This document shows positions 3,046 through 23,919 of a stretch of 52,681 bases of DNA, in pieces (the first letter of the stretch is position 1; each line of letters starts with the position of its first letter). Both the position numbers and the translations under genes were made by a program. The stretch lies in the IMG/VR virus record IMGVR_UViG_3300030060_001275, positions 1 to 52,681 of that record; one strand, 5' to 3'. The DNA comes from a virus. The notes beneath the pieces are model-generated. The model searched no databases and was not told the origin of the DNA. It saw only the letters and a list, made by a program, of their open reading frames with translations.

Positions 3046-4761
3046 TTATCGCCTTGCTCCTACTCCGAACTCCAATTGGAATCCTTTTAGTGAATATGGT
3101 GCTGATGCCGCTGTATCATTTATGCGTAGCGCAACAGCAAAACCTGAACCTTCTACAGATTGCCTTAATAATGGTGTTCTTTGACCACCATACGTTCCTG
3201 TACTACCGTATGTACTTACTCCATACAGTGCAAGAACATCAGAAGCGTTTAAAATATATGCAGCAGGATTAGTTGAATCAGGAGATTCATAATCATATCT
3301 TAAAAATAAACTAGCATTAATAGCCGCTTCAGGTGCATAGTTTATAATTATTCGATGCATATCTTTGCGTATACCCGCATCTCCCATAGTTAAATCTGGA
3401 GAACGGTATCTGCCATTAATAGCTGTACCATCAAATGTGTTACCACTCTCTTGCAAAAACACATAGCCGTCAAAGCCACCATGCAATACAGTTTCTGGTT
3501 GTCTTTCATTATCGTAATCTGTACAAGCAGGTTTAATGCCTTTTAATTCAGAAAATACAAAACCCTGTTGTGTTAAGCTAGCTATTATTCCTAAAGTATT
3601 AGCTACTGAATCTGTTTCGTTTACAAAAAATATTCTATATTGTGTTTTGGTAGGGACTACAACAGACTCAATTTGATCAAATGAAGTAAGTCCATCAAAC
3701 TTTACTTGAACAGGTTTTGAAATTGTTCCTAATTCAACATCTCCAATTTTATCCGTACCTGCAATAGTACGCAATCCATCAGGAGCTAGAAATATAATAT
3801 CTCCTCCTAATTCCTGAACACTGTGTTTAGCAGAACAACCTAGATCACGAGTAACTGGTTGTAATACAAAGTCGCTTAATGTATTTCCTGTAATTTTAAA
3901 TATTTTTTCTCTTCCAAAGACGTACAACTGATCTCTGAAAGTCTTTAATGCTACGACTGTATCATCAACACTGATACTACCTCCCCCATTACCAGAGGAA
4001 AAATCATTTTCTGAGAAAGGCGCACTAAAAAATACTTGGTTAGGACTAGCACTATGCCCAGATAAAAATACATGATTTTTAAATATTTCAACAATAGATG
4101 GAGCAGAGGGTGCATCTGAATGTGTAATGTCTGTTACAGAAGAACCATTATAAAAACTTGCTCTATTAACACCATCAACAAAAATTAATTTACTTGTGCC
4201 TGCAAAATTATATCTTTTGAAAGAAAACTTACCTGCATTTGTTCTACCCGAATCTATAGAAGTCCAAGTTTGTGATACAACAGCATCATCAGAATGAGAA
4301 GCGGCACTAGTATTATTAACTCCTCTGGTGCAACCAGTAAACGTAGTGCTTGTAGTACCTGTATAAGTTATCTGTTCTGTGCCAATTAAAAGTGTTCCAG
4401 TAGAAGTAAATCCAGTAGTTGAGTCTACAGTTATAGTAGTTACAGAATCATTGATTGCACCATTTAACTGATCTGTTTGATTTGTAGAGCGAAATACAGA
4501 TTCGCCTCTTGCCGCTATAACTTCAGTTGATCCATAACTTGCCGCCATTAACACTGGCTCAGATGCAGAGGCTGTTTGAGGAACTACACTACTATTCCAT
4601 TTACTAAATCCGTTTATCCTCCGATATCCTCCATTAATATCAGATTCAAAATTTATTAATTCAAGAGCCATGCCCGGTTCTAAAGTAAAAGCAGATCTGT
4701 TAAGAACAAGACCACCAGAGCAGGAAAACTGTAACGGTTGTACGCCAGACTGATCTGCCAT
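3046..4761 (-). CDS. Tail stabilisation-type structural protein (571 aa)
   Basis: Begins MADQSGVQPLQFSCSGGLVLNRSAFTLEPGM and continues ALELINFESDINGGYRRINGF. This opening is typical of phage proteins that build the tail hub or plug and are often annotated as P22 gp10-like stabilisation proteins. The remainder is beta-rich (ITVDSTTGFTSTGTLLIGTEQITYTG, then a propeller-like region with KTFRDQLYVFGREKIFKITG). It sits between the tail-tube-like protein and the fibre with gaps of 1-2 nt. Virion location is likely. The P22 gp10 analogy is inferred from family resemblance and gene order. Confidence 0.65.
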   Translation of the reverse strand: MADQSGVQPLQFSCSGGLVLNRSAFTLEPGMALELINFESDINGGYRRINGFSKWNSSVVPQTASASEPVLMAASYGSTEVIAARGESVFRSTNQTDQLNGAINDSVTTITVDSTTGFTSTGTLLIGTEQITYTGTTSTTFTGCTRGVNNTSAASHSDDAVVSQTWTSIDSGRTNAGKFSFKRYNFAGTSKLIFVDGVNRASFYNGSSVTDITHSDAPSAPSIVEIFKNHVFLSGHSASPNQVFFSAPFSENDFSSGNGGGSISVDDTVVALKTFRDQLYVFGREKIFKITGNTLSDFVLQPVTRDLGCSAKHSVQELGGDIIFLAPDGLRTIAGTDKIGDVELGTISKPVQVKFDGLTSFDQIESVVVPTKTQYRIFFVNETDSVANTLGIIASLTQQGFVFSELKGIKPACTDYDNERQPETVLHGGFDGYVFLQESGNTFDGTAINGRYRSPDLTMGDAGIRKDMHRIIINYAPEAAINASLFLRYDYESPDSTNPAAYILNASDVLALYGVSTYGSTGTYGGQRTPLLRQSVEGSGFAVALRINDTAASAPYSLKGFQLEFGVGARR

Positions 4762-4762
4762 G

Positions 4763-5482
4763 TTAGGTCACCGTTGAATTTATAAATGAAAATCTGTTAT
4801 TTCTAGGAATATATGTAGAACGAACATAATCATGTCTGTTACCTAACACACCCAGCATATTTTTAATACCTTCATCAAAACGATCTAAACTTAATTGATA
4901 CTGCGTAGTTTCACCACGAAACTGATAACCATACATGACAGCACCATCAGCTATAACATGCCTAAATCTTTCTGGTATAGAAGGCACATCCCCGTGTGCA
5001 GATAAATCAGCAGGAAATGTATAAAAATCAAATTTTATTTTATAGGTATCATCTGGATATGGATACAAACCATATTTATTAGCAGGATCTCTAAATACAT
5101 GAGTAGGCTTGCCACCCACATCAGAAGTATCCTCTTGATCACTATATTTTTCAATGTATTCTTTATAATCTATAAAAGTAAGTTTTCTTCCCGTTGCTCC
5201 CTTAGATGTATCAGGAACTAGTCTAAAGGTATTATAATCTATTAATTTAGTGCTAGTGGGTAGTGCATATCTTGTTTGATTAGCAACAAGTGTAATTTCA
5301 GCCTCTGAATGATTAAAAGGCCAAGCATACTCTCGTTGATTAATATTTCTGATAGCAGAGTTTACTGCATTTTTGCATTGTGTTTGAAACCCACGAGAAG
5401 AAGCAAAGTTAGCAGAAGTTAAAGGAACTTCATTAAATCTTGCTAGCACTTCATTTGTAACATCTAAATATGTATATGCCAT
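4763..5482 (-). CDS. Tail tubular protein A-like head-tail adaptor (239 aa)
   Basis: MAYTYLDVTNEVLARFNEVPL, then a helical segment (CKNAVNSAIRNINQREYAWPFNHSE) and a beta-rich half (RHVIADGAVMYGYQFRGE...). The pattern fits podovirus tail-tube/adaptor proteins (T7 gp11 or P22 gp4 class), which form a ring under the portal. It directly precedes the stabilisation protein and follows the capsid/decoration genes, the expected order. It lies just after a UUCG-type terminator hairpin, so it may be expressed at a lower level than capsid. Confidence 0.6.
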   Translation of the reverse strand: MAYTYLDVTNEVLARFNEVPLTSANFASSRGFQTQCKNAVNSAIRNINQREYAWPFNHSEAEITLVANQTRYALPTSTKLIDYNTFRLVPDTSKGATGRKLTFIDYKEYIEKYSDQEDTSDVGGKPTHVFRDPANKYGLYPYPDDTYKIKFDFYTFPADLSAHGDVPSIPERFRHVIADGAVMYGYQFRGETTQYQLSLDRFDEGIKNMLGVLGNRHDYVRSTYIPRNNRFSFINSTVT

Positions 5483-5499
5483 TAGAAATATTAACCCTT

Positions 5500-5526
5500 G
5501 TAGAGAAGAAGGGGGCCGAAGCCCCC
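5500..5526 (-). terminator. UUCG hairpin between decoration and tail genes
   Basis: On the minus strand GGGGGC-TTCG-GCCCCC (5511-5526) is followed by TTCTTCTCTA. It lies directly after the stop of the 171-aa gene. The 6-bp GC stem with a UUCG tetraloop looks like a partial intrinsic terminator or mRNA stabiliser separating abundant head proteins from tail genes. Confidence 0.65.
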
Positions 5527-5533
5527 GACTTAT

Positions 5534-6049
5534 TTATGCAAGCTGATCTCTTACTACTTCAGCAATGTCGTCTTCTCTTCCATTGAAGTCAGCGACAAGT
5601 GCGTAAACACGTAGCTTACCAACTGTAACATCAGCAGAACTAGCAATTAATTTAACATCAATTGTATCTGTAGAAGTTACAAGCTGGGTGTAAGTAGCTT
5701 GACTTGTTATATTTGCTCCGCCATTAGAACCAGCGGCGAGGAAGCCTGTAGATGTTACATCACCACCATCAACAATGTCATCACCAGCGGCGAAATCAAT
5801 GTCAACAGTAGGAGAGGAGCCATCAAAGGCAGTTAGTACCTCTGCACCAGCAGCAATAATCATAGTATTAGCTGGAATTTCTAATACTTGGAAAATGTCA
5901 CCGTTAGTGCATGAGTAGTTAGCAATTTCAGAAATATCTAAAACGCCTTCTAGCATGGTAACAGCAGTTTCCATATTGCGAAGTACAGGTACTACATCAG
6001 CTTTTTCCTCTGTAAAAGTTGATGCAAGGGTAAGATCAAAAGTAGCCAT
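5534..6049 (-). CDS. Probable head decoration / minor capsid protein (171 aa)
   Basis: Small Thr/Ala/Asp-rich beta protein (MATFDLTLASTFTEEKADVVPVLRN...) with no Lys-rich or membrane segments. It is encoded 13 nt after the major capsid gene and ahead of a strong hairpin, as expected for a capsid decoration protein made in large amounts. The stretch VDIDFAAGDDIVDGGDVTSTGF is a short acidic loop. The role rests on position and composition; no specific family motif was recognised. Confidence 0.5.
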   Translation of the reverse strand: MATFDLTLASTFTEEKADVVPVLRNMETAVTMLEGVLDISEIANYSCTNGDIFQVLEIPANTMIIAAGAEVLTAFDGSSPTVDIDFAAGDDIVDGGDVTSTGFLAAGSNGGANITSQATYTQLVTSTDTIDVKLIASSADVTVGKLRVYALVADFNGREDDIAEVVRDQLA

Positions 6050-6062
6050 TATCTATCTCTCC

Positions 6063-7133
6063 TTATGCCGCATTGTACTTAGCAGTCACAATAGCTTCTG
6101 GACGAAGAATCTTGCGACCATATAAGTGCATACCACGGACAATATCAGCAAAGCTGTCAGGATCACGATATGTCTCAGTTTTATTGATCTGTTGAGCAGT
6201 AGCAACCGCTGAATCGTGACCTGCAACAATAACTCCAAAGTTACTGTTCTGATTTGCTGAACCTGAAGTACCAGCACCAGTTCCAACAGAAGGCAAGTTG
6301 TTAGAAACAATTACACGGAATCCGTGTAGGTTGTTTACTACCAAACCATTCTGAAGACCAGCACCACCAAAGTCTGCGTTTAACAGACGAGAATCTTCAT
6401 CTTTTAGCAGTTCCATGAAGACCGGATCAACAACAAGCCAACGTCCCTGCGTATCAACATACTGCTGATCAAGTAGACGACCCATACGAGAAATAACCTG
6501 AAGAGGAGATGCTGACGCTGTAGCAAGCGCAGTAGCACCCGGTAAACGAGGCACTAATGGGATTGAGTGATCTCCAGCAGAGCCTGTGGTGATATTACCA
6601 AAGCTATCTTTACGAAGCTTCATAGTAGTCAAAAGCTCGTCAGATCCTGCTGTGCTTACAGCTTTACTTCCAGATACCACATCGTTTGCGGTACTGGCAA
6701 CTGCGGATAAAGATGCTTGCTTAAAGCCAGATAAATATCCAAGCACTTCAGCGTCATATTGATCACGAAGACGATATGCCGCACGATCAGAAGCCATCTG
6801 TAAAAAGTTTACATGTGAATGTGCTTCTTCAATGTCATCAATCTTGAAAGCAAAGTAATTTGACTTATCAATGACAAGAGTAAAATCTTCATCATCAAGA
6901 TCTTGAGGGACAATTTGAGCACCACGAGCATACTGTTTAACAGTGATTTCTGGCTCTTTAATAATTTTGACAGAGTCACCCATTTGGGCTATCTCTCCAA
7001 AATAATCATTATTTGTTATGCCTTCTATTACAGAGGCTTTACGAAAAGCAAGCTGCACTTGCTTACTGTAAATAATAGGGCTAAAGTTACCATTTGGTAG
7101 GTTACCATAGCCCGATGCAGTTTGAAATGCCAT
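6063..7133 (-). CDS. Major capsid protein (356 aa)
   Basis: MAFQTASGYGNLPNGNFSP, IYSKQVQLAFRKASVIEGITNNDYFGEI and IKIIKEPEITVKQYARGAQ-type segments match HK97-fold coat proteins of marine podoviruses. The C-terminal part (FRVIVSNNLPSVGTG, IVAGHDSAVATAQQINKTETYRDP) fits the A-domain. It is preceded by the scaffold gene and its own promoter plus a 250-nt leader, consistent with high expression. SD AGGAG lies just before the ATG. Confidence 0.85.
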   Translation of the reverse strand: MAFQTASGYGNLPNGNFSPIIYSKQVQLAFRKASVIEGITNNDYFGEIAQMGDSVKIIKEPEITVKQYARGAQIVPQDLDDEDFTLVIDKSNYFAFKIDDIEEAHSHVNFLQMASDRAAYRLRDQYDAEVLGYLSGFKQASLSAVASTANDVVSGSKAVSTAGSDELLTTMKLRKDSFGNITTGSAGDHSIPLVPRLPGATALATASASPLQVISRMGRLLDQQYVDTQGRWLVVDPVFMELLKDEDSRLLNADFGGAGLQNGLVVNNLHGFRVIVSNNLPSVGTGAGTSGSANQNSNFGVIVAGHDSAVATAQQINKTETYRDPDSFADIVRGMHLYGRKILRPEAIVTAKYNAA

Positions 7134-12544: not shown

Positions 12545-14155
12545 TTAATATCCAAATGTAGAGTCTGAGGGAACATAAGAAGAAGGACTCTGATTAGTAG
12601 GATCAAAGTCCCAGATAGAAAATCTAGGTCTTGACATTATACCATAACGTAATGCATCGTATAAGTGATCTTCTGATTTAGTATCTACATCTTCTGGGTT
12701 TCTTTTATCTAATGGTATAACAGGCAATTGAGAAATAATATTTGTACAAGTATTAAAAAATATTATTCTTGGTTCTTCTGTGTATTCGTCAACTTGCAGC
12801 CTTCTGTGCATTTCATTTTTACCAGATACACGAGAACCCGCAGATCTATCTGATGGCCTCCATCTGCATCCTTTCATATTCATTTGTTCCGCCAAAGACG
12901 GCCCAGTATCACCTCGCTTATGCCAGCACGAACTGTCCAAAATTCCATATTTGATATTGTTATCTCCTGCTTCCATATCAATAACCATGTCTGCAAGATC
13001 AGTTGCCAACACTTTACTAACATACAACTCACGATAAACAATAAGCTGTTCAGAAGGTGATACAGCAATCCAAACAACAGCAGAGTAAGAACCATAACCA
13101 TAATCACAGGCGCGAAACTTAACCCAATTGCGAGGTATATCAAAAGGCTCCACAACATGTATTTCTCTGTTAAACTCAGTGAAAGCCGCGCCTTCTGCAA
13201 CATCCCAATTGCCTTCTAATAATTGTTTTCTTTGATGCTCAGGTAAAGACAAGAGCATTGCTTCATAATCCCCCTGCTCATATAAGTGGGGATTGTCTGT
13301 TAACATAGCAGGAATAAACCTGCGTTTAAATAAAGGTTGAAACTCTTTTGAGTGTCCCTTTGGATACATTAACACTTTACCGCTTGCAATATCAGTTGCA
13401 TTAAACGATTGACCCGGAGGCGCAGGATCTATAAACATCTTTTTAACCCATGCATGACCGGGACCACCGGGGTTAGTAGTAGCTCTCATATACACTGGTA
13501 AATCAGGTGCTGTGCTACGCAAACGTGATCTCATATAGTCCCATGCAAAGTTTGTATTCCATTGTGTTAGTTCATCAAACCCTATCCAACTAAAAGCTTG
13601 TCCTTGATATCTTAATACATCATCTGCTCGATCCAGATAAGAAAACCACAACCTTGCACCGGAAGGAGCAACCCACTGCATTTTTCTCTCTGACCATTTT
13701 ATTCCGGGCCAGATCTTTGGATACATCTCCTGAGACTTCCATACAAGCTCTCTAAGCTCTTCATTGGTATGTCGTAATAGCAACCCACTAAAGGAGGGAT
13801 GACCCATGAACCTGAGAGGATCTGCAAGCATTGCGTAAGATTTACCGCCACCTGCCGCACCTCCATAGAGAACTTCTCTTTCACCTGCTGCCAAGAACTC
13901 AGTTTGAGGACCAGCATTAGGTTTAAATATTACATTATGCTCTTCTTCAGGACGTATTGGCTCAAACTCGTTAGGCTCTTGGGGATCTGCCTTTACCTCA
14001 ATGTTGGGTAATGGCTGACTCTTCTTCCTTGCTGATCCTCGACTTCCTTGCGCCAAGCCTCGACCTTTCGATGGTTTCCGCTTTGGAGATCGCCGCTTCG
14101 TACCTTCTGGCCCATTCGCGGAGAGTTGCACTTCGTCTTTTGTGGGACTGCTCAC
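12545..14155 (-). CDS. terL: Terminase large subunit (536 aa)
   Basis: Packaging ATPase/nuclease. Walker A GGAAGGGKS is at residues 98-106, Walker B FSWIGFDE at 188-195 and the coupling motif TTNPGG at 226-231. The C-terminal RNase H-like nuclease has acidic residues in FRACDYGYGSYSAVVW, GILDSSCW and SEDHLYDALRYG. The first ~45 residues are extremely basic (KRRSPKRKPSKGRG...) and are encoded within a 158-nt overlap with the upstream HTH gene. No alternative ATG follows before the ATPase core, so the ATG is retained. It works with the 123-aa small subunit and the portal. Confidence 0.92.
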   Translation of the reverse strand: MSSPTKDEVQLSANGPEGTKRRSPKRKPSKGRGLAQGSRGSARKKSQPLPNIEVKADPQEPNEFEPIRPEEEHNVIFKPNAGPQTEFLAAGEREVLYGGAAGGGKSYAMLADPLRFMGHPSFSGLLLRHTNEELRELVWKSQEMYPKIWPGIKWSERKMQWVAPSGARLWFSYLDRADDVLRYQGQAFSWIGFDELTQWNTNFAWDYMRSRLRSTAPDLPVYMRATTNPGGPGHAWVKKMFIDPAPPGQSFNATDIASGKVLMYPKGHSKEFQPLFKRRFIPAMLTDNPHLYEQGDYEAMLLSLPEHQRKQLLEGNWDVAEGAAFTEFNREIHVVEPFDIPRNWVKFRACDYGYGSYSAVVWIAVSPSEQLIVYRELYVSKVLATDLADMVIDMEAGDNNIKYGILDSSCWHKRGDTGPSLAEQMNMKGCRWRPSDRSAGSRVSGKNEMHRRLQVDEYTEEPRIIFFNTCTNIISQLPVIPLDKRNPEDVDTKSEDHLYDALRYGIMSRPRFSIWDFDPTNQSPSSYVPSDSTFGY

Positions 14156-14453
14156 TATCTATACGCTTTTTTAAACCCATGTGAGAAATGCTACGCCCTG
14201 TCTGTTTAGTCAGCCAGTTTGCAACTTCTCTATAACTATATTGTTGTAAATACTCTTTTGCTTTTTCTAGTGCTCTTAACTCTCTAGGCACAGGAGAAAG
14301 CATATCCTTATCCTCTGGATCTTCTATATAACCAAAAGGAATAGTACGAGCTATTCTTGGAATACTAAGAAAATCTTCATCTTCTATAGTATTTTTAGGT
14401 TGTGGTAATATCCACTTACCCGTTGATCTACTAGCTGTCATTTTCCTCTTCAC
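13998..14453 (-). CDS. Helix-turn-helix protein between terminase subunits (151 aa)
   Basis: The central region (KEYLQQYSYREVANWLTKQ, then TGRSISHMGLKKRI) reads as a helix-turn-helix like those of recombinase or terminase small subunits. A coiled-coil, Arg-rich tail follows (EWARRYEAAISKAETIERSR). It overlaps the large terminase by 158 nt and the probable small subunit by 23 nt. It could be a second DNA-recognition component of the packaging machine or a regulator. The HTH is visible; the role is inferred. Confidence 0.6.
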   Translation of the reverse strand: MKRKMTASRSTGKWILPQPKNTIEDEDFLSIPRIARTIPFGYIEDPEDKDMLSPVPRELRALEKAKEYLQQYSYREVANWLTKQTGRSISHMGLKKRIDSEQSHKRRSATLREWARRYEAAISKAETIERSRLGARKSRISKEEESAITQH

Positions 14454-15325: not shown

Positions 15326-15577
15326 TTAACGATACCTTGCTGTCTTTTTTGCTATTTTTTTAGGCTGTTTTGCAAACTGTTTGCCCGATGCCTTTGCTTT
15401 CCGCTTGGCTTTGGTAGTTGCGGCATATTCTTTGGACGAGAGCGCACGGATAGCCGCTGATGGCAGATAACGCTCCCCAGTGGCCTTTGACCCTTGCGTA
15501 GAAGGCTTTCCTGATTTCGTTCGCCACTTCTGCTTCGTCCAATCTTTTAAACTCTTTTGAGACTTTTTGAGTGCCAT
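15326..15577 (-). CDS. Conserved small basic phage protein (83 aa)
   Basis: [39 protein letters not shown] and AIRALSSKEYAATTKAKRKAK are a recognisable conserved pattern in marine phages, ending in a Lys-rich tail (KQFAKQPKKIAKKT). No enzymatic motif. The start is adjacent to the stop of the 109-aa gene. Probably DNA-associated or packaged in the virion; role unknown. Confidence 0.65.
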   Translation of the reverse strand: MALKKSQKSLKDWTKQKWRTKSGKPSTQGSKATGERYLPSAAIRALSSKEYAATTKAKRKAKASGKQFAKQPKKIAKKTARYR

Positions 15578-15906
15578 CAGCTTTTGTAACCTCCTCCTGC
15601 TTTTTTATAAGCGGCGGCAAGCATCTGGGCTTTCCGTGCACTCCATTGACCGGATGCTCCACCTTTGCTGCCAGACTTAATGCGGTTAAAGATCCGTTTC
15701 CGTAGGCCGGGTTTGGTATAATTGCCAGCTTCATTGACTCTACTCTTAGGTTTACCTCCCGTTGACATTTTATTAACAGAAGGTTTTGTTTTACCAGCTT
15801 TGGATAAAGCAATTGCCACAGCTTGTTTTTGAGGTTTGCCTTTTTTTATTTCCGTTTTAATATTTTTAGAAATTGTTTTGGAGGATTTACCTCTTTTAAG
15901 CGGCAT
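15577..15906 (-). CDS. Conserved small basic phage protein (109 aa)
   Basis: Two conserved blocks: [29 protein letters not shown], a DUF6496-like pattern, and [19 protein letters not shown], continuing into [19 protein letters not shown]. The latter is frequent in marine phage genomes. The protein is Lys/Gly-rich without hydrophobic segments. It overlaps the SET gene by 11 nt. Function unknown. Confidence 0.65.
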
Positions 15907-16312
15907 TGCTCTTTTCCTCTTCTTCTCTACTATTCCAGTATTCTACACCATAATCATGTGTTATTTCTGTTCCTTTACGTATGTCCTTTAACGCCACAAA
16001 AACAATTAAGTTTTCATTGTTTTCATCTGCACACCACTCAGCGTTTGGATCGTCAGAGTGATTGTAAAGCATGGCATAGCCTAAAGGAGCAATCATACGT
16101 GAATCATTCGTAAAAGGTGTACCGAACATATAATCCTGTAACACGGATGTGGCTTCTACGTCATCATCTTCTATACTAAGAAAAGGACAGTATTCAATTA
16201 CGTCCCCTTTTTTTATAGGAAAAGAAGCGTATACACCAAATCCGTGTATTTCAGATTCTTTTACGTATATGCTGAGCAATGACTTACTTCTTCTTAGTGG
16301 ACATTCCGCCAC
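15896..16312 (-). CDS. SET-domain protein (putative lysine methyltransferase, 138 aa)
   Basis: The SET fold signature is visible: HGFGVYA (residues 23-29) followed by IKKGDVIE, then YNHSDDPN (83-90) and [10 protein letters not shown] (117-126), in the order used for SAM and lysine binding. SET proteins transfer methyl groups from SAM to protein lysines. At 138 aa this is a minimal SET domain without pre- or post-SET cysteines. It lies among Lys-rich small proteins (83, 109 and 64 aa), which are plausible substrates. The fold assignment is fairly secure; substrate and activity are inferred. Confidence 0.75.
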
Positions 16313-16478
16313 GCATCATTTTCTTTTTAGCCATTTTAGACATGCCGCCACCAGCCATTTTTTTCTTCTTAGCCATTTTAGCCATGCCACCACCCATCAT
16401 TTTTTTCTTCATGGGCATACCACCGCCACGCATCATTTTTTTCTTGGCAGTCTTTACTTTACCTTTATGTCCCGGCAT
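16284..16478 (-). CDS. Lys/Met/Gly repeat protein (64 aa)
   Basis: Composed of repeats of the type [10 protein letters not shown] and AKMAKKKKMAGGGMSK; 21 of 64 residues are Lys and 15 are Met. The repeat is visible in DNA as a TTTTTTCTT...CCACC pattern on the plus strand. It overlaps the SET gene by 29 nt and the upstream gene by 14 nt. Probably an unstructured, nucleic-acid- or membrane-binding peptide and a possible substrate of the SET protein. Similar KKMMGGG peptides occur in marine podoviruses. Confidence 0.65.
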   Translation of the reverse strand: MPGHKGKVKTAKKKMMRGGGMPMKKKMMGGGMAKMAKKKKMAGGGMSKMAKKKMMRGGMSTKKK

Positions 16479-16998
16479 TTCGTAATCCTCTTCTGTATAG
16501 AACTAAACTTTCATATGTATCTTTCGGAAAGTGTTTATAGTAACCACTCTTCTCCAGACTTAATGCTGCATCATCTAGAACAGATAGACGTTGAACAAAA
16601 ACCATAGCGTAATCAAGTTCTGAGTCTTCTAAACACTCTACTTCTTCTAGAAAATCCAACCCTGCTTCTAAAGGACTGTAGTCTGGATGAAATAACATTA
16701 AATGTAAATCTGTTCCAACTACTGACAGTGCTTCATTAATACCATCACAAAAGCCATCAAGGTACTCCATTTCTGGATATTCTTCATCAGCCCAGATAAC
16801 GATATCGAAATTATGAGTATCGTACTTTTGTATTTCTTCAACTAACCCATCTAAACCTGTGTTAATTGAAAACTTTACTTGATTATCCAACCATGCTTTT
16901 TTTGCATAAGGGCATGGAGGTAATCCGTTTAGTTTGTCACAAGGTACTTCTAAAAACTCTTGTGACCACTTTCGTATTTCATCTTCGATGTCAGACAT
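16465..16998 (-). CDS. Acidic hypothetical protein with LPPCPYAKKAW motif (177 aa)
   Basis: Starts at the ATG at 16996-16998; the longer frame begins at TTG. The N-terminal block WSQEFLEVPCDKLNGLPPCP, continuing YAKKAWL, recalls DUF1415-type proteins (LCPFAKA pattern), and FDIVIWADEEYP follows. The rest is helical and acidic. It contrasts with its very basic neighbours. Its start lies within the 3' end of the 121-aa gene. No function can be assigned. Confidence 0.6.
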   Translation of the reverse strand: MSDIEDEIRKWSQEFLEVPCDKLNGLPPCPYAKKAWLDNQVKFSINTGLDGLVEEIQKYDTHNFDIVIWADEEYPEMEYLDGFCDGINEALSVVGTDLHLMLFHPDYSPLEAGLDFLEEVECLEDSELDYAMVFVQRLSVLDDAALSLEKSGYYKHFPKDTYESLVLYRRGLRNAGT

Positions 16999-17356
16999 CA
17001 AAGCCCATTTTACGAACAGCCTGTCTTCCTTTTGGAGACTGAGCCAACTTTTTTAATCCTTTATTAGGCAGATTATCTACAACAGCACCTCCCCCTACAT
17101 ACATGTGTGGGGTTCTTTTACCGCCAGCCATACCGCCTTCTTTCATCTTTGGGCTACCTAATGCACCTCTAACTCTCTGAAGATTTTCTTTAGCTGCCTC
17201 AAGTCTATCTTGCAAATTTTTTGATGGGCTTCCGGGATTATCACGCATACGAGCTTCTAACATTAAAACTTCTGTTTCATATTCTCGCAATTCATTTTCT
17301 AACCTAGATTTTAAATCTGCTCCAACTTGTTCTGGTGTCATATTAATTTCAGCCAT
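16991..17356 (-). CDS. Coiled-coil protein with GG motif (121 aa)
   Basis: Residues ~12-70 form a charged coiled coil (LENELREYETEVLMLEARMRD). It then switches to a Gly-rich tail with MKEGGMAGGKRTPHMYVGGGAV and SPKGRQAVRKMGFDV. The tail style is shared by other late proteins in this genome, suggesting virion association. Stop and start overlap the neighbouring genes. Confidence 0.6.
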   Translation of the reverse strand: MAEINMTPEQVGADLKSRLENELREYETEVLMLEARMRDNPGSPSKNLQDRLEAAKENLQRVRGALGSPKMKEGGMAGGKRTPHMYVGGGAVVDNLPNKGLKKLAQSPKGRQAVRKMGFDV

Positions 17357-23845: not shown

Positions 23846-23919
23846 CTTGGGGGAGCCAGACGGTCAGGCGGTGGTCTGCAAAACCACAGAAACGGGTTCG
23901 ACTCCCGTCCCCAAGTCCA
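23846..23919 (+). tRNA. tRNA-Cys (anticodon GCA)
   Basis: The cloverleaf folds by eye: acceptor CTTGGGG/CCCCAAG, 3-bp D stem GCC/GGC, anticodon stem GTGGT/ACCAC with loop CTGCAAA (anticodon GCA), and T arm ACGGG-TTCGACT-CCCGT. Discriminator T and an encoded CCA end at 23919. Position 8 is G rather than the usual T. It could supplement Cys decoding of the Cys-rich early proteins nearby, or serve as an attachment-site remnant. Confidence 0.9.

What the first reader, a model, noticed from the sequence alone, without database searches (positions are those of the whole stretch)
15896..16478. SET-domain gene overlapping a Lys/Met/Gly repeat peptide gene
A minimal SET protein (putative lysine methyltransferase) shares 29 nt with a 64-aa gene whose product has 21 Lys and 15 Met, and sits beside other very Lys-rich small proteins. 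A phage enzyme-substrate pair that modifies DNA-condensing or virion peptides is plausible and, as far as I know, undescribed.
Basis: partly seen in the sequence, partly recalled or inferred. Interest (0 to 1): 0.72.

Follow-up and report, generated by a model that had tools for sequence, protein, structure and literature searches.

The report
Phage methyltransferase paired with lysine-rich peptide
Phages of a common marine group often carry a tiny protein-methylating enzyme gene directly behind a gene for a very basic lysine-methionine-glycine peptide, and certain forms of that peptide are seen almost only where the enzyme gene is present, which suggests (but does not prove) that the virus chemically tags its own basic peptide.

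Summary
The genes are real. In this HMO-2011-type phage contig a minimal SET protein (PF00856 E=3.8e-18; nearest solved sequence chlorovirus vSET) follows a 64-aa Lys/Met/Gly repeat peptide (KMG). The 29-nt overlap is a start-codon artefact: relatives put the SET start at TTG 16279, 4 nt after the KMG stop. KMG is conserved as protein (627 synonymous, 212 nonsynonymous codon differences) and follows a phrog_28122 gene (CPYA) in 159 of 163 usable loci. SET is optional (74 of 163), but of 77 SET loci 75 have KMG upstream; the two others lie in far larger phages. KMG comes in two classes that mostly track SET: at least one of three marks (MGGG, KKKKM, GKAK) is in 70 of 73 SET+ and 5 of 86 SET- peptides, and the class differs even between phages with near-identical flanks (L016/L109). 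Against a dedicated pair: SET relatives stand alone in SAR116-type bacteria and large phages, KMG occurs more often without SET, and SET and KMG do not co-vary in detail. Best reading: an enzyme-substrate cassette (p about 0.47); rivals are plain linkage and a host target. No catalysis, virion location or DNA binding was shown.

The parts
15896..16279 (-). SET-domain protein (vSET-like putative protein lysine methyltransferase), 127 aa from TTG 16279; the ORF can be read from GTG 16312 (138 aa)
   Evidence: PF00856 E=3.8e-18; nearest PDB sequence vSET 1n3j E=3.6e-22; start from relatives
16284..16478 (-). KMG peptide, 64 aa, 21 Lys, 15 Met, imperfect KKKMMxGGGMAKMA repeats; putative SET substrate
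   Evidence: KMG found in 159 of 163 usable CPYA loci
16465..17001 (-). phrog_28122 protein ('CPYA', motif GLPPCPYAK), the near-constant upstream neighbour of KMG; overlaps it by 14 nt; function unknown
   Evidence: phrog_28122 E=6.2e-68; alignment; AF2 pLDDT 83, no PDB match at E 0.001
15577..15906 (-). basic small protein (phrog_2423 N-terminal part, phrog_17747 C-terminal part), overlaps the SET end by 11 nt; used as control gene
   Evidence: control
15326..15577 (-). phrog_14910 basic small protein; used as control gene
   Evidence: control
12545..14155 (-). terminase large subunit, identifies the contig as HMO-2011-type
   Evidence: 75.4% identity to CRP-345, 77.7% to CRP-1, 75.5% to HMO-2011

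Best explanation
KMG and SET form an optional enzyme-substrate cassette of HMO-2011-type phages. The operon makes a short, strongly basic peptide (KMG), by its composition probably disordered and likely to bind nucleic acid or another polyanion. In about a quarter to two fifths of sampled loci a vSET-like methyltransferase is encoded right behind it, most often with a 1-nt stop-start overlap, so that both are probably made together. The acidic SET protein binds the basic peptide and methylates lysines in its K-runs, using SAM, tuning its binding or its stability. Shown: the genes, motifs, order, selection on KMG, and KMG class differing with SET presence. Inferred: SAM use and lysine methylation (from the family), KMG as substrate, nucleic-acid binding. 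Not shown: any role in the virion.
For: Of 77 distinct SET loci with at least 250 nt upstream, 75 have KMG upstream, 51 of them with a 1-nt overlap. KMG class mostly follows SET: AKMAKKKK 42/73 vs 0/86, MGGG 53/73 vs 0/86; KKKKM 45/73 vs 1/86, GKAK 57/73 vs 4/86, GG[AVST] 9/73 vs 62/86, GKTK 0/73 vs 27/86. Weighted by CPYA clusters, MGGG 0.79 vs 0.00 and KKKKM 0.69 vs 0.02 in 24 vs 28 units; the two classes differ within each of 5 mixed clusters. SET state changes 11 times on the CPYA tree (4 forced by starred branches); in 4 independent pairs KMG class goes with SET in 3.5 on average, never against (p 0.125). L016 and L109 have CPYA 97% identical and differ by the SET gene and the KMG allele. 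Nearest-neighbour prediction of SET among non-kin: KMG 0.87, CPYA 0.64, phrog_17747 0.55, terS2 0.56, terS 0.43, phrog_14910 0.42. No SET remnant within 2 kb on the sense strand of 89 SET- loci. Opposite charges: SET mean -20, KMG mean +20. Precedents, passages of papers: C. pneumoniae cpnSET binds Hc1 and Hc2 and methylates Hc1 (PMC3980110); archaeal Go1-SET methylates MC1-alpha in vitro (PMC6776556).
Against: KMG is commoner without SET (86 of 159). SET relatives exist without KMG in bacteria and in other phages (33 of 36), so the family's usual substrate is something else. The class match is not perfect: 3 of 73 SET+ peptides (L152, L144, L211) bear none of the marks and L152 and L144 look like the SET- class; 5 of 86 SET- peptides bear one mark. 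Within SET+ loci KMG distance does not follow SET distance once CPYA is accounted for (partial r -0.01, p 0.56), while phrog_14910 does (0.46). Adjacency alone can make KMG and SET travel together. The marks were picked on the same peptides. The independent-pair test is too small to be significant. Of the precedents, C. trachomatis NUE did not methylate Hc1. No biochemical data.
Confidence: 0.47

Rival explanations
1. Linkage only. SET is a cargo gene inserted behind KMG long ago; homologous recombination swaps CPYA-KMG-SET segments between phages, so KMG allele and SET travel together without any functional tie. SET acts on something else.
For: KMG and SET are adjacent; L016/L109 look like a segment swap; within SET+ loci no detailed KMG-SET co-variation; a few mixed combinations exist (L152, L144, L211 with SET).
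Against: Simple SET deletions should leave SET-class KMG behind, but 0 of 86 SET- peptides have MGGG and no SET remnants were found in 89 SET- loci. The downstream gene phrog_17747 tracks SET poorly among non-kin (0.55 against 0.87 for KMG), though it is further away.
Confidence: 0.3
2. Host-directed enzyme. SET is an auxiliary gene shared with SAR116-like Alphaproteobacteria that methylates a conserved host protein (nucleoid, ribosomal or other); KMG is a separate late peptide.
For: Close SETs (43-51% identity) lie in contigs of SAR116/Puniceispirillum and other marine Alphaproteobacteria, without KMG or CPYA nearby and with no copy of the KMG DNA pattern in 9 of 9 such genomes; HMO-2011 infects Puniceispirillum; other large phages carry SET without KMG.
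Against: Does not explain why SET in this group is always behind KMG nor why KMG class mostly follows SET. HMO-2011 itself has no SET.
Confidence: 0.18
3. SET is a catalytically idle partner: an acidic chaperone that masks the basic KMG peptide until it is needed.
For: Opposite charges and stop-start overlap.
Against: 68 of 68 distinct phage SETs keep the SAM-binding and catalytic motifs, which a chaperone would not need.
Confidence: 0.05

Closest known systems
vSET (A612L) of Paramecium bursaria chlorella virus 1
   Same: Nearest solved sequence by profile (E=3.6e-22) and second by fold; viral, 119-residue bare SET domain with matching GxG, NHSxDPNA and YGxxYW stretches (alignment).
   Different: vSET acts on histone H3 Lys27 of an algal host and is packaged (PMC7019647, passages); bacteria lack histone H3 (recalled), and here the gene is tied to a basic peptide gene.
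Chlamydial cpnSET with histone-like Hc1; archaeal Go1-SET with MC1-alpha
   Same: Prokaryotic SET enzymes reported to methylate small basic DNA-binding proteins of their own cell (PMC3980110, PMC10117894, PMC6776556; passages).
   Different: Cellular, not phage; gene order was not compared; methylation not shown for the phage pair.
SAR116 / Puniceispirillum SET proteins
   Same: 43-51% identical to the window SET; same length and motifs.
   Different: No KMG or CPYA nearby; in the 5 SAR116 loci printed (L287, L289, L291, L295, L297) the gene lies between an oxidoreductase-like and a metallohydrolase-like gene (named by eye), in L285 and L302 elsewhere; less acidic.
HMO-2011-type phages (HMO-2011, CRP-345)
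   Same: Same phage group and same CPYA-KMG gene pair; the KMG gene of HMO-2011 is unannotated.
   Different: No SET in these two records nor in 8 other annotated genomes of or near the group.

Membership tests
SET-domain protein lysine methyltransferase (Pfam PF00856) | Full-length match to the SET profile over the curated cut-off | tested here: met
   66.3 bits against cut-off 22.4, profile positions 1-105 of 105
SET-domain protein lysine methyltransferase (Pfam PF00856) | SAM-binding and catalytic motifs (GxG, NHS/R, catalytic Tyr; motif roles recalled) | tested here: met
   patterns match 68 of 68 distinct phage SETs
SET-domain protein lysine methyltransferase (Pfam PF00856) | SET fold | tested here: met
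   AF2 pLDDT 85, pTM 0.75; Foldseek 4rz0 E=6.3e-10, vSET 3kma E=2.5e-9
SET-domain protein lysine methyltransferase (Pfam PF00856) | Methyl transfer from SAM to a lysine | not testable with these tools
   needs an enzyme assay
vSET group | Closest to vSET among solved sequences, minimal domain without pre/post-SET | tested here: met
   (best hit 1n3j); 127 aa in all
vSET group | H3 Lys27 specificity, packaging in the virion | not testable with these tools
   needs an assay and proteomics
Basic-protein/SET modification pair (cpnSET-Hc1 type) | SET protein with a Lys-rich small protein of the same replicon as partner | tested here: inconclusive
   gene association met in 75 of 77 SET loci; partnership itself not tested
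Basic-protein/SET modification pair (cpnSET-Hc1 type) | The basic protein binds DNA and is methylated by the SET protein | not testable with these tools
   inferred from composition and charge only
HMO-2011-type phage | Terminase and late-gene similarity to HMO-2011 | tested here: met
   terminase 75-78% identical to CRP-345, CRP-1, HMO-2011; CPYA-KMG shared with HMO-2011 and CRP-345

The most novel reading that the evidence does not exclude
A virus of bacteria carries its own miniature chromatin-style system: a protamine-like repeat peptide and a dedicated histone-methyltransferase-like enzyme that writes methyl marks on it, gained and lost as a cassette with a matching peptide allele, in a common marine phage group.
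Probability: 0.3. Interest if true: 0.85.

Novelty: new variant of a known kind. Interest (0 to 1): 0.6.

Why it matters
Phage SET proteins have been noted in annotation (Stenotrophomonas phage Ps15 ORF62, PMC9025141, one passage), there listed among proteins of unknown function. A SET gene whose presence is largely matched by the sequence class of the adjacent Lys-rich peptide gives a concrete candidate substrate, testable in one assay. If true, it would be protein lysine methylation of a phage's own basic peptide, a parallel of histone methylation in a virus of bacteria, in a phage group described as dominant and broadly distributed in the sea (abstract of PMC9038755); and it would bear on what the SET of SAR116 bacteria does. 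Even if only linkage, it reveals a conserved gene (KMG) that is unannotated in HMO-2011.

Tried and rejected
The 29-nt gene overlap as a sign of coupling: rejected, start-codon artefact; the usual arrangement in relatives is a 1-nt overlap, TAATG in 50 of 51.

Two independent captures of SET next to KMG: a quick tree suggested two phage clades split by bacterial SETs, but the careful tree, with long-branch bacterial and phage rows left out and near copies thinned (47 rows), put the phage SETs on one side of a branch (95/92), so a single origin is not excluded. Dropped.

Detailed KMG-SET co-evolution: partial Mantel within 67 SET+ loci found none. Reported as evidence against.

I lowered the best explanation from 0.50 to 0.47 and raised linkage from 0.27 to 0.30 for that.

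A general MxxGG motif in window proteins: 7 seen against 5.5 in shuffles; the gene set of that script left out KMG itself. Dropped.

CPYA function: AF2 model (pLDDT 83) has no PDB match at E 0.001 or below; unresolved.

Another enzyme in the slot behind KMG when SET is absent: the first downstream gene falls into several clusters, the largest a small protein that looks membrane-associated by eye; no single replacement enzyme.

Literature: searches of the held PMC library (listings; passages of six papers) showed no paper on a phage SET with a basic peptide; most subscription papers are not held. [quoted passage not shown]

Full report
What is there. The window is a 52,681-base IMG/VR virus record whose terminase is 75-78% identical to Roseobacter phages CRP-345 and CRP-1 and to Puniceispirillum phage HMO-2011, so it belongs to the HMO-2011-type phages. 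On the - strand the order is CPYA (16465-17001, phrog_28122), KMG (16284-16478), SET (15896-16279), then a basic phrog_2423/17747 protein (15577-15906). CPYA and KMG are my working names. The habitats of the IMG/VR contigs were not shown to me; 'marine' rests on the named relatives.

Start of SET. The stated 29-nt overlap needs GTG 16312 as start. Relatives begin at the MLN/MPYV residue. The first start codon of the SET frame (for the window, the TTG) is ATG in 61, TTG in 7 and GTG in 6 of 74 loci, and in L135, L208, L213, L218 and L225 a stop 1-2 codons upstream excludes an extension. In 51 of 77 loci SET overlaps the KMG stop by 1 nt, TAATG in 50 and TAGTG in 1. The window start is most likely TTG 16279.

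SET family. PF00856, E=3.8e-18. The best solved relative by profile is vSET of PBCV-1 (1n3j, 3.6e-22), then Plasmodium PFL0690c and 'SET domain-containing protein 7' 5h6z, which Foldseek names S. pombe Set7; the AF2 model (pLDDT 85, pTM 0.75) gives the same three proteins at the top of Foldseek. Motif patterns match 68 of 68 distinct phage SETs. In 180 close SET pairs codon differences were 2955 synonymous, 1913 nonsynonymous (pairs overlap).

KMG is a real gene. It uses mixed synonymous codons. In 93 same-length pairs 627 of 839 codon differences are synonymous against 0.18 expected from random point changes (pairs not independent). In HMO-2011 it lies unannotated in the gap after gp66 (50 aa, L007 4503-4655); in CRP-345 it is at L008 2605-2748, annotated from a later start as gp77. 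Some loci carry KMG as the tail of a longer protein.

Census and its limits. SET was found in 21 of the 80 CPYA-ascertained loci and 46 of the 120 pattern-ascertained stretches (my count from the list, copies not thinned). After removing duplicates 186 CPYA loci remained, of which 163 were usable (CPYA at least 150 aa, and either SET or at least 1200 nt downstream; 23 dropped): 74 SET+, 89 SET-; KMG was found in 159. The four misses are L009, L010, L107 and L083; in L083 KMG was found by the rule, and it is left out of the 73 SET+ peptides. The pooled SET fraction is inflated by the SET-ascertained scan. KMG was defined by composition and GG motifs, with different cut-offs.

SET implies KMG in this group. 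Of 86 distinct SET loci, 77 had at least 250 nt upstream; 75 of these have CPYA and 75 have KMG, 70 within 29 nt and 5 at 177-371 nt. The two exceptions are L011 (735-kb phage assembly) and L005 (150-kb contig). KMG does not imply SET: 86 of 159 usable loci with KMG lack it. HMO-2011, CRP-345, CRP-810 and S-SSM7 have no SET in their whole records (0 of 4), nor do 8 further annotated genomes of or near the group (0 of 8); in the stretches of those 8 beside the terminase no KMG of this type was seen, only longer basic proteins with GG tails in 4 (L354, L355, L356, L358).

KMG class mostly follows SET. MGGG: 53 of 73 SET+ peptides, 0 of 86 SET-. AKMAKKKK: 42 of 73, 0 of 86. ASKK: 0 of 73, 23 of 86. 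KKKKM 45 and 1, GKAK 57 and 4, GG[AVST] 9 and 62, GKTK 0 and 27. At least one of MGGG, KKKKM and GKAK is in 70 of 73 SET+ and 5 of 86 SET- peptides; the exceptions are L152, L144, L211 and L112, L102, L069, L054, L058. Among distinct peptides the residue after GG is Met in 97% of SET+ and 66% of SET- cases. Weighted by CPYA clusters at 85% identity (47 clusters, 5 with both states; 24 SET+ and 28 SET- units): MGGG 0.79 vs 0.00, GKAK 0.77 vs 0.03, KKKKM 0.69 vs 0.02, GG[AVST] 0.19 vs 0.77; in each of the 5 mixed clusters SET+ and SET- peptides differ in class, though L234 lacks MGGG. On the CPYA tree (quick method) SET changes state 11 times (4 forced by starred branches; shuffled mean 54); in the 4 independent pairs on starred branches KMG goes with SET in 3.5 on average and never against, sign test p 0.125. 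The marks were chosen after looking at the same peptides, so the Fisher p-values are not independent tests. L016 (SET+) and L109 (SET-) have CPYA DNA 97% identical over the stretch compared. Per 50-nt block, L016 2651-3897 is 88-100% and 4919-6568 is 74-100% identical to L109; between them KMG is about 66-82%, SET is absent from L109, and a further stretch, 4493-4918, has diverged.

Control genes. Taking for each locus the nearest relative among loci whose CPYA similarity is under 0.8, SET state is predicted correctly in 0.87 by KMG (159 loci), 0.64 by CPYA (163), 0.55 by phrog_17747 (143), 0.56 by terS2, the gene at 13998-14453 (94), 0.43 by terS (123), 0.42 by phrog_14910 (134); for the gene upstream of CPYA only 9 loci qualified (0.44). 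Without the kin filter CPYA does nearly as well as KMG (0.93 vs 0.95). KMG is also next to SET, so part of this is linkage.

Results against. Within 67 SET+ loci KMG distance is not related to SET distance given CPYA (partial r -0.01, p 0.56), while it is related to CPYA given SET (0.28); phrog_14910 relates to SET given CPYA (0.46, 58 loci) where KMG on the same rows gives 0.10. None of 28 bacterial SET loci shows KMG or CPYA (L296, L300 and L307 hold under 200 nt upstream); 16 of them are from Alphaproteobacteria or alphaproteobacterium-like marine bins, 10 titled SAR116 or Puniceispirillum. Nine of these genomes hold no copy of the KMG DNA pattern (0 of 9). A scan with bacterial SETs found 36 viral loci: 33 without KMG, 2 with it, 1 cut off upstream (near copies not thinned); several of the large phages have two SETs in tandem (by eye, confirmed for L316). 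A fifth set, relatives of the L171 SET, gave 5 loci, all with KMG (at least two are contigs seen before).

Mechanism. Charges are opposite: phage SETs mean -19.8 (73), KMG mean +20.0 (159), alphaproteobacterial SETs -13.2 (16), other bacterial -6.0 (12), the bacterial ones taken over their last 125 residues. From this, the family, the precedents of cpnSET with Hc1 and Go1-SET with MC1-alpha, and the class difference, I infer that SET methylates KMG. The absence of MGGG-class KMG in 86 SET- peptides and of SET remnants within 2 kb downstream, sense strand, in 89 SET- loci is not what simple SET deletion would leave, but swaps of whole segments could give it, and a few mixed loci exist. I put the pair at 0.47, linkage 0.30, a host target 0.18, an idle partner 0.05.

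Novelty. SET proteins in phages are not new as annotation (PMC9025141). In the searches named under Tried and rejected I found no report of a phage SET paired with a basic peptide; I did not search for KMG by name, having none. The kind, a vSET-like enzyme with a possible basic-protein target, is known; the phage cassette with matched peptide classes is a new variant.

Noticed in passing
L007 4503-4655 (HMO-2011, NC_021864): An unannotated 50-aa KMG gene fills the gap between gp66 and gp65 in the type phage of the group.
   Followed up: yes
L285-L299, L302: SAR116/Puniceispirillum and related marine Alphaproteobacteria carry a vSET-like gene, in the five SAR116 loci printed at one conserved place, target unknown.
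   Followed up: partly
L316, L319, L322, L326-L331: Large phage contigs appear to carry two vSET-like SET genes in tandem (by eye; two PF00856 matches confirmed for L316), without a Lys-rich neighbour.
   Followed up: partly
window 16465-17001: The phrog_28122 'CPYA' family is the near-constant partner of KMG; relatives also occur in cyanophage S-SSM7 and beside a 2OG-Fe(II) oxygenase gene in CRP-810; its predicted fold has no PDB match at E 0.001.
   Followed up: partly
L020, L086, L120, L128, L141, L199: In several loci the KMG repeats form the tail of a longer protein with varied N-terminal parts, as if the tail were a module.
   Followed up: no
window 23846-23919: A tRNA-Cys (GCA) gene in the phage contig.
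   Followed up: no
L007 6844-7926; cluster 10: HMO-2011 has an annotated methanesulfonate monooxygenase (PF00848) downstream of KMG; a cluster of 19 genes downstream of KMG in the sampled loci looks Rieske-like by eye.
   Followed up: no
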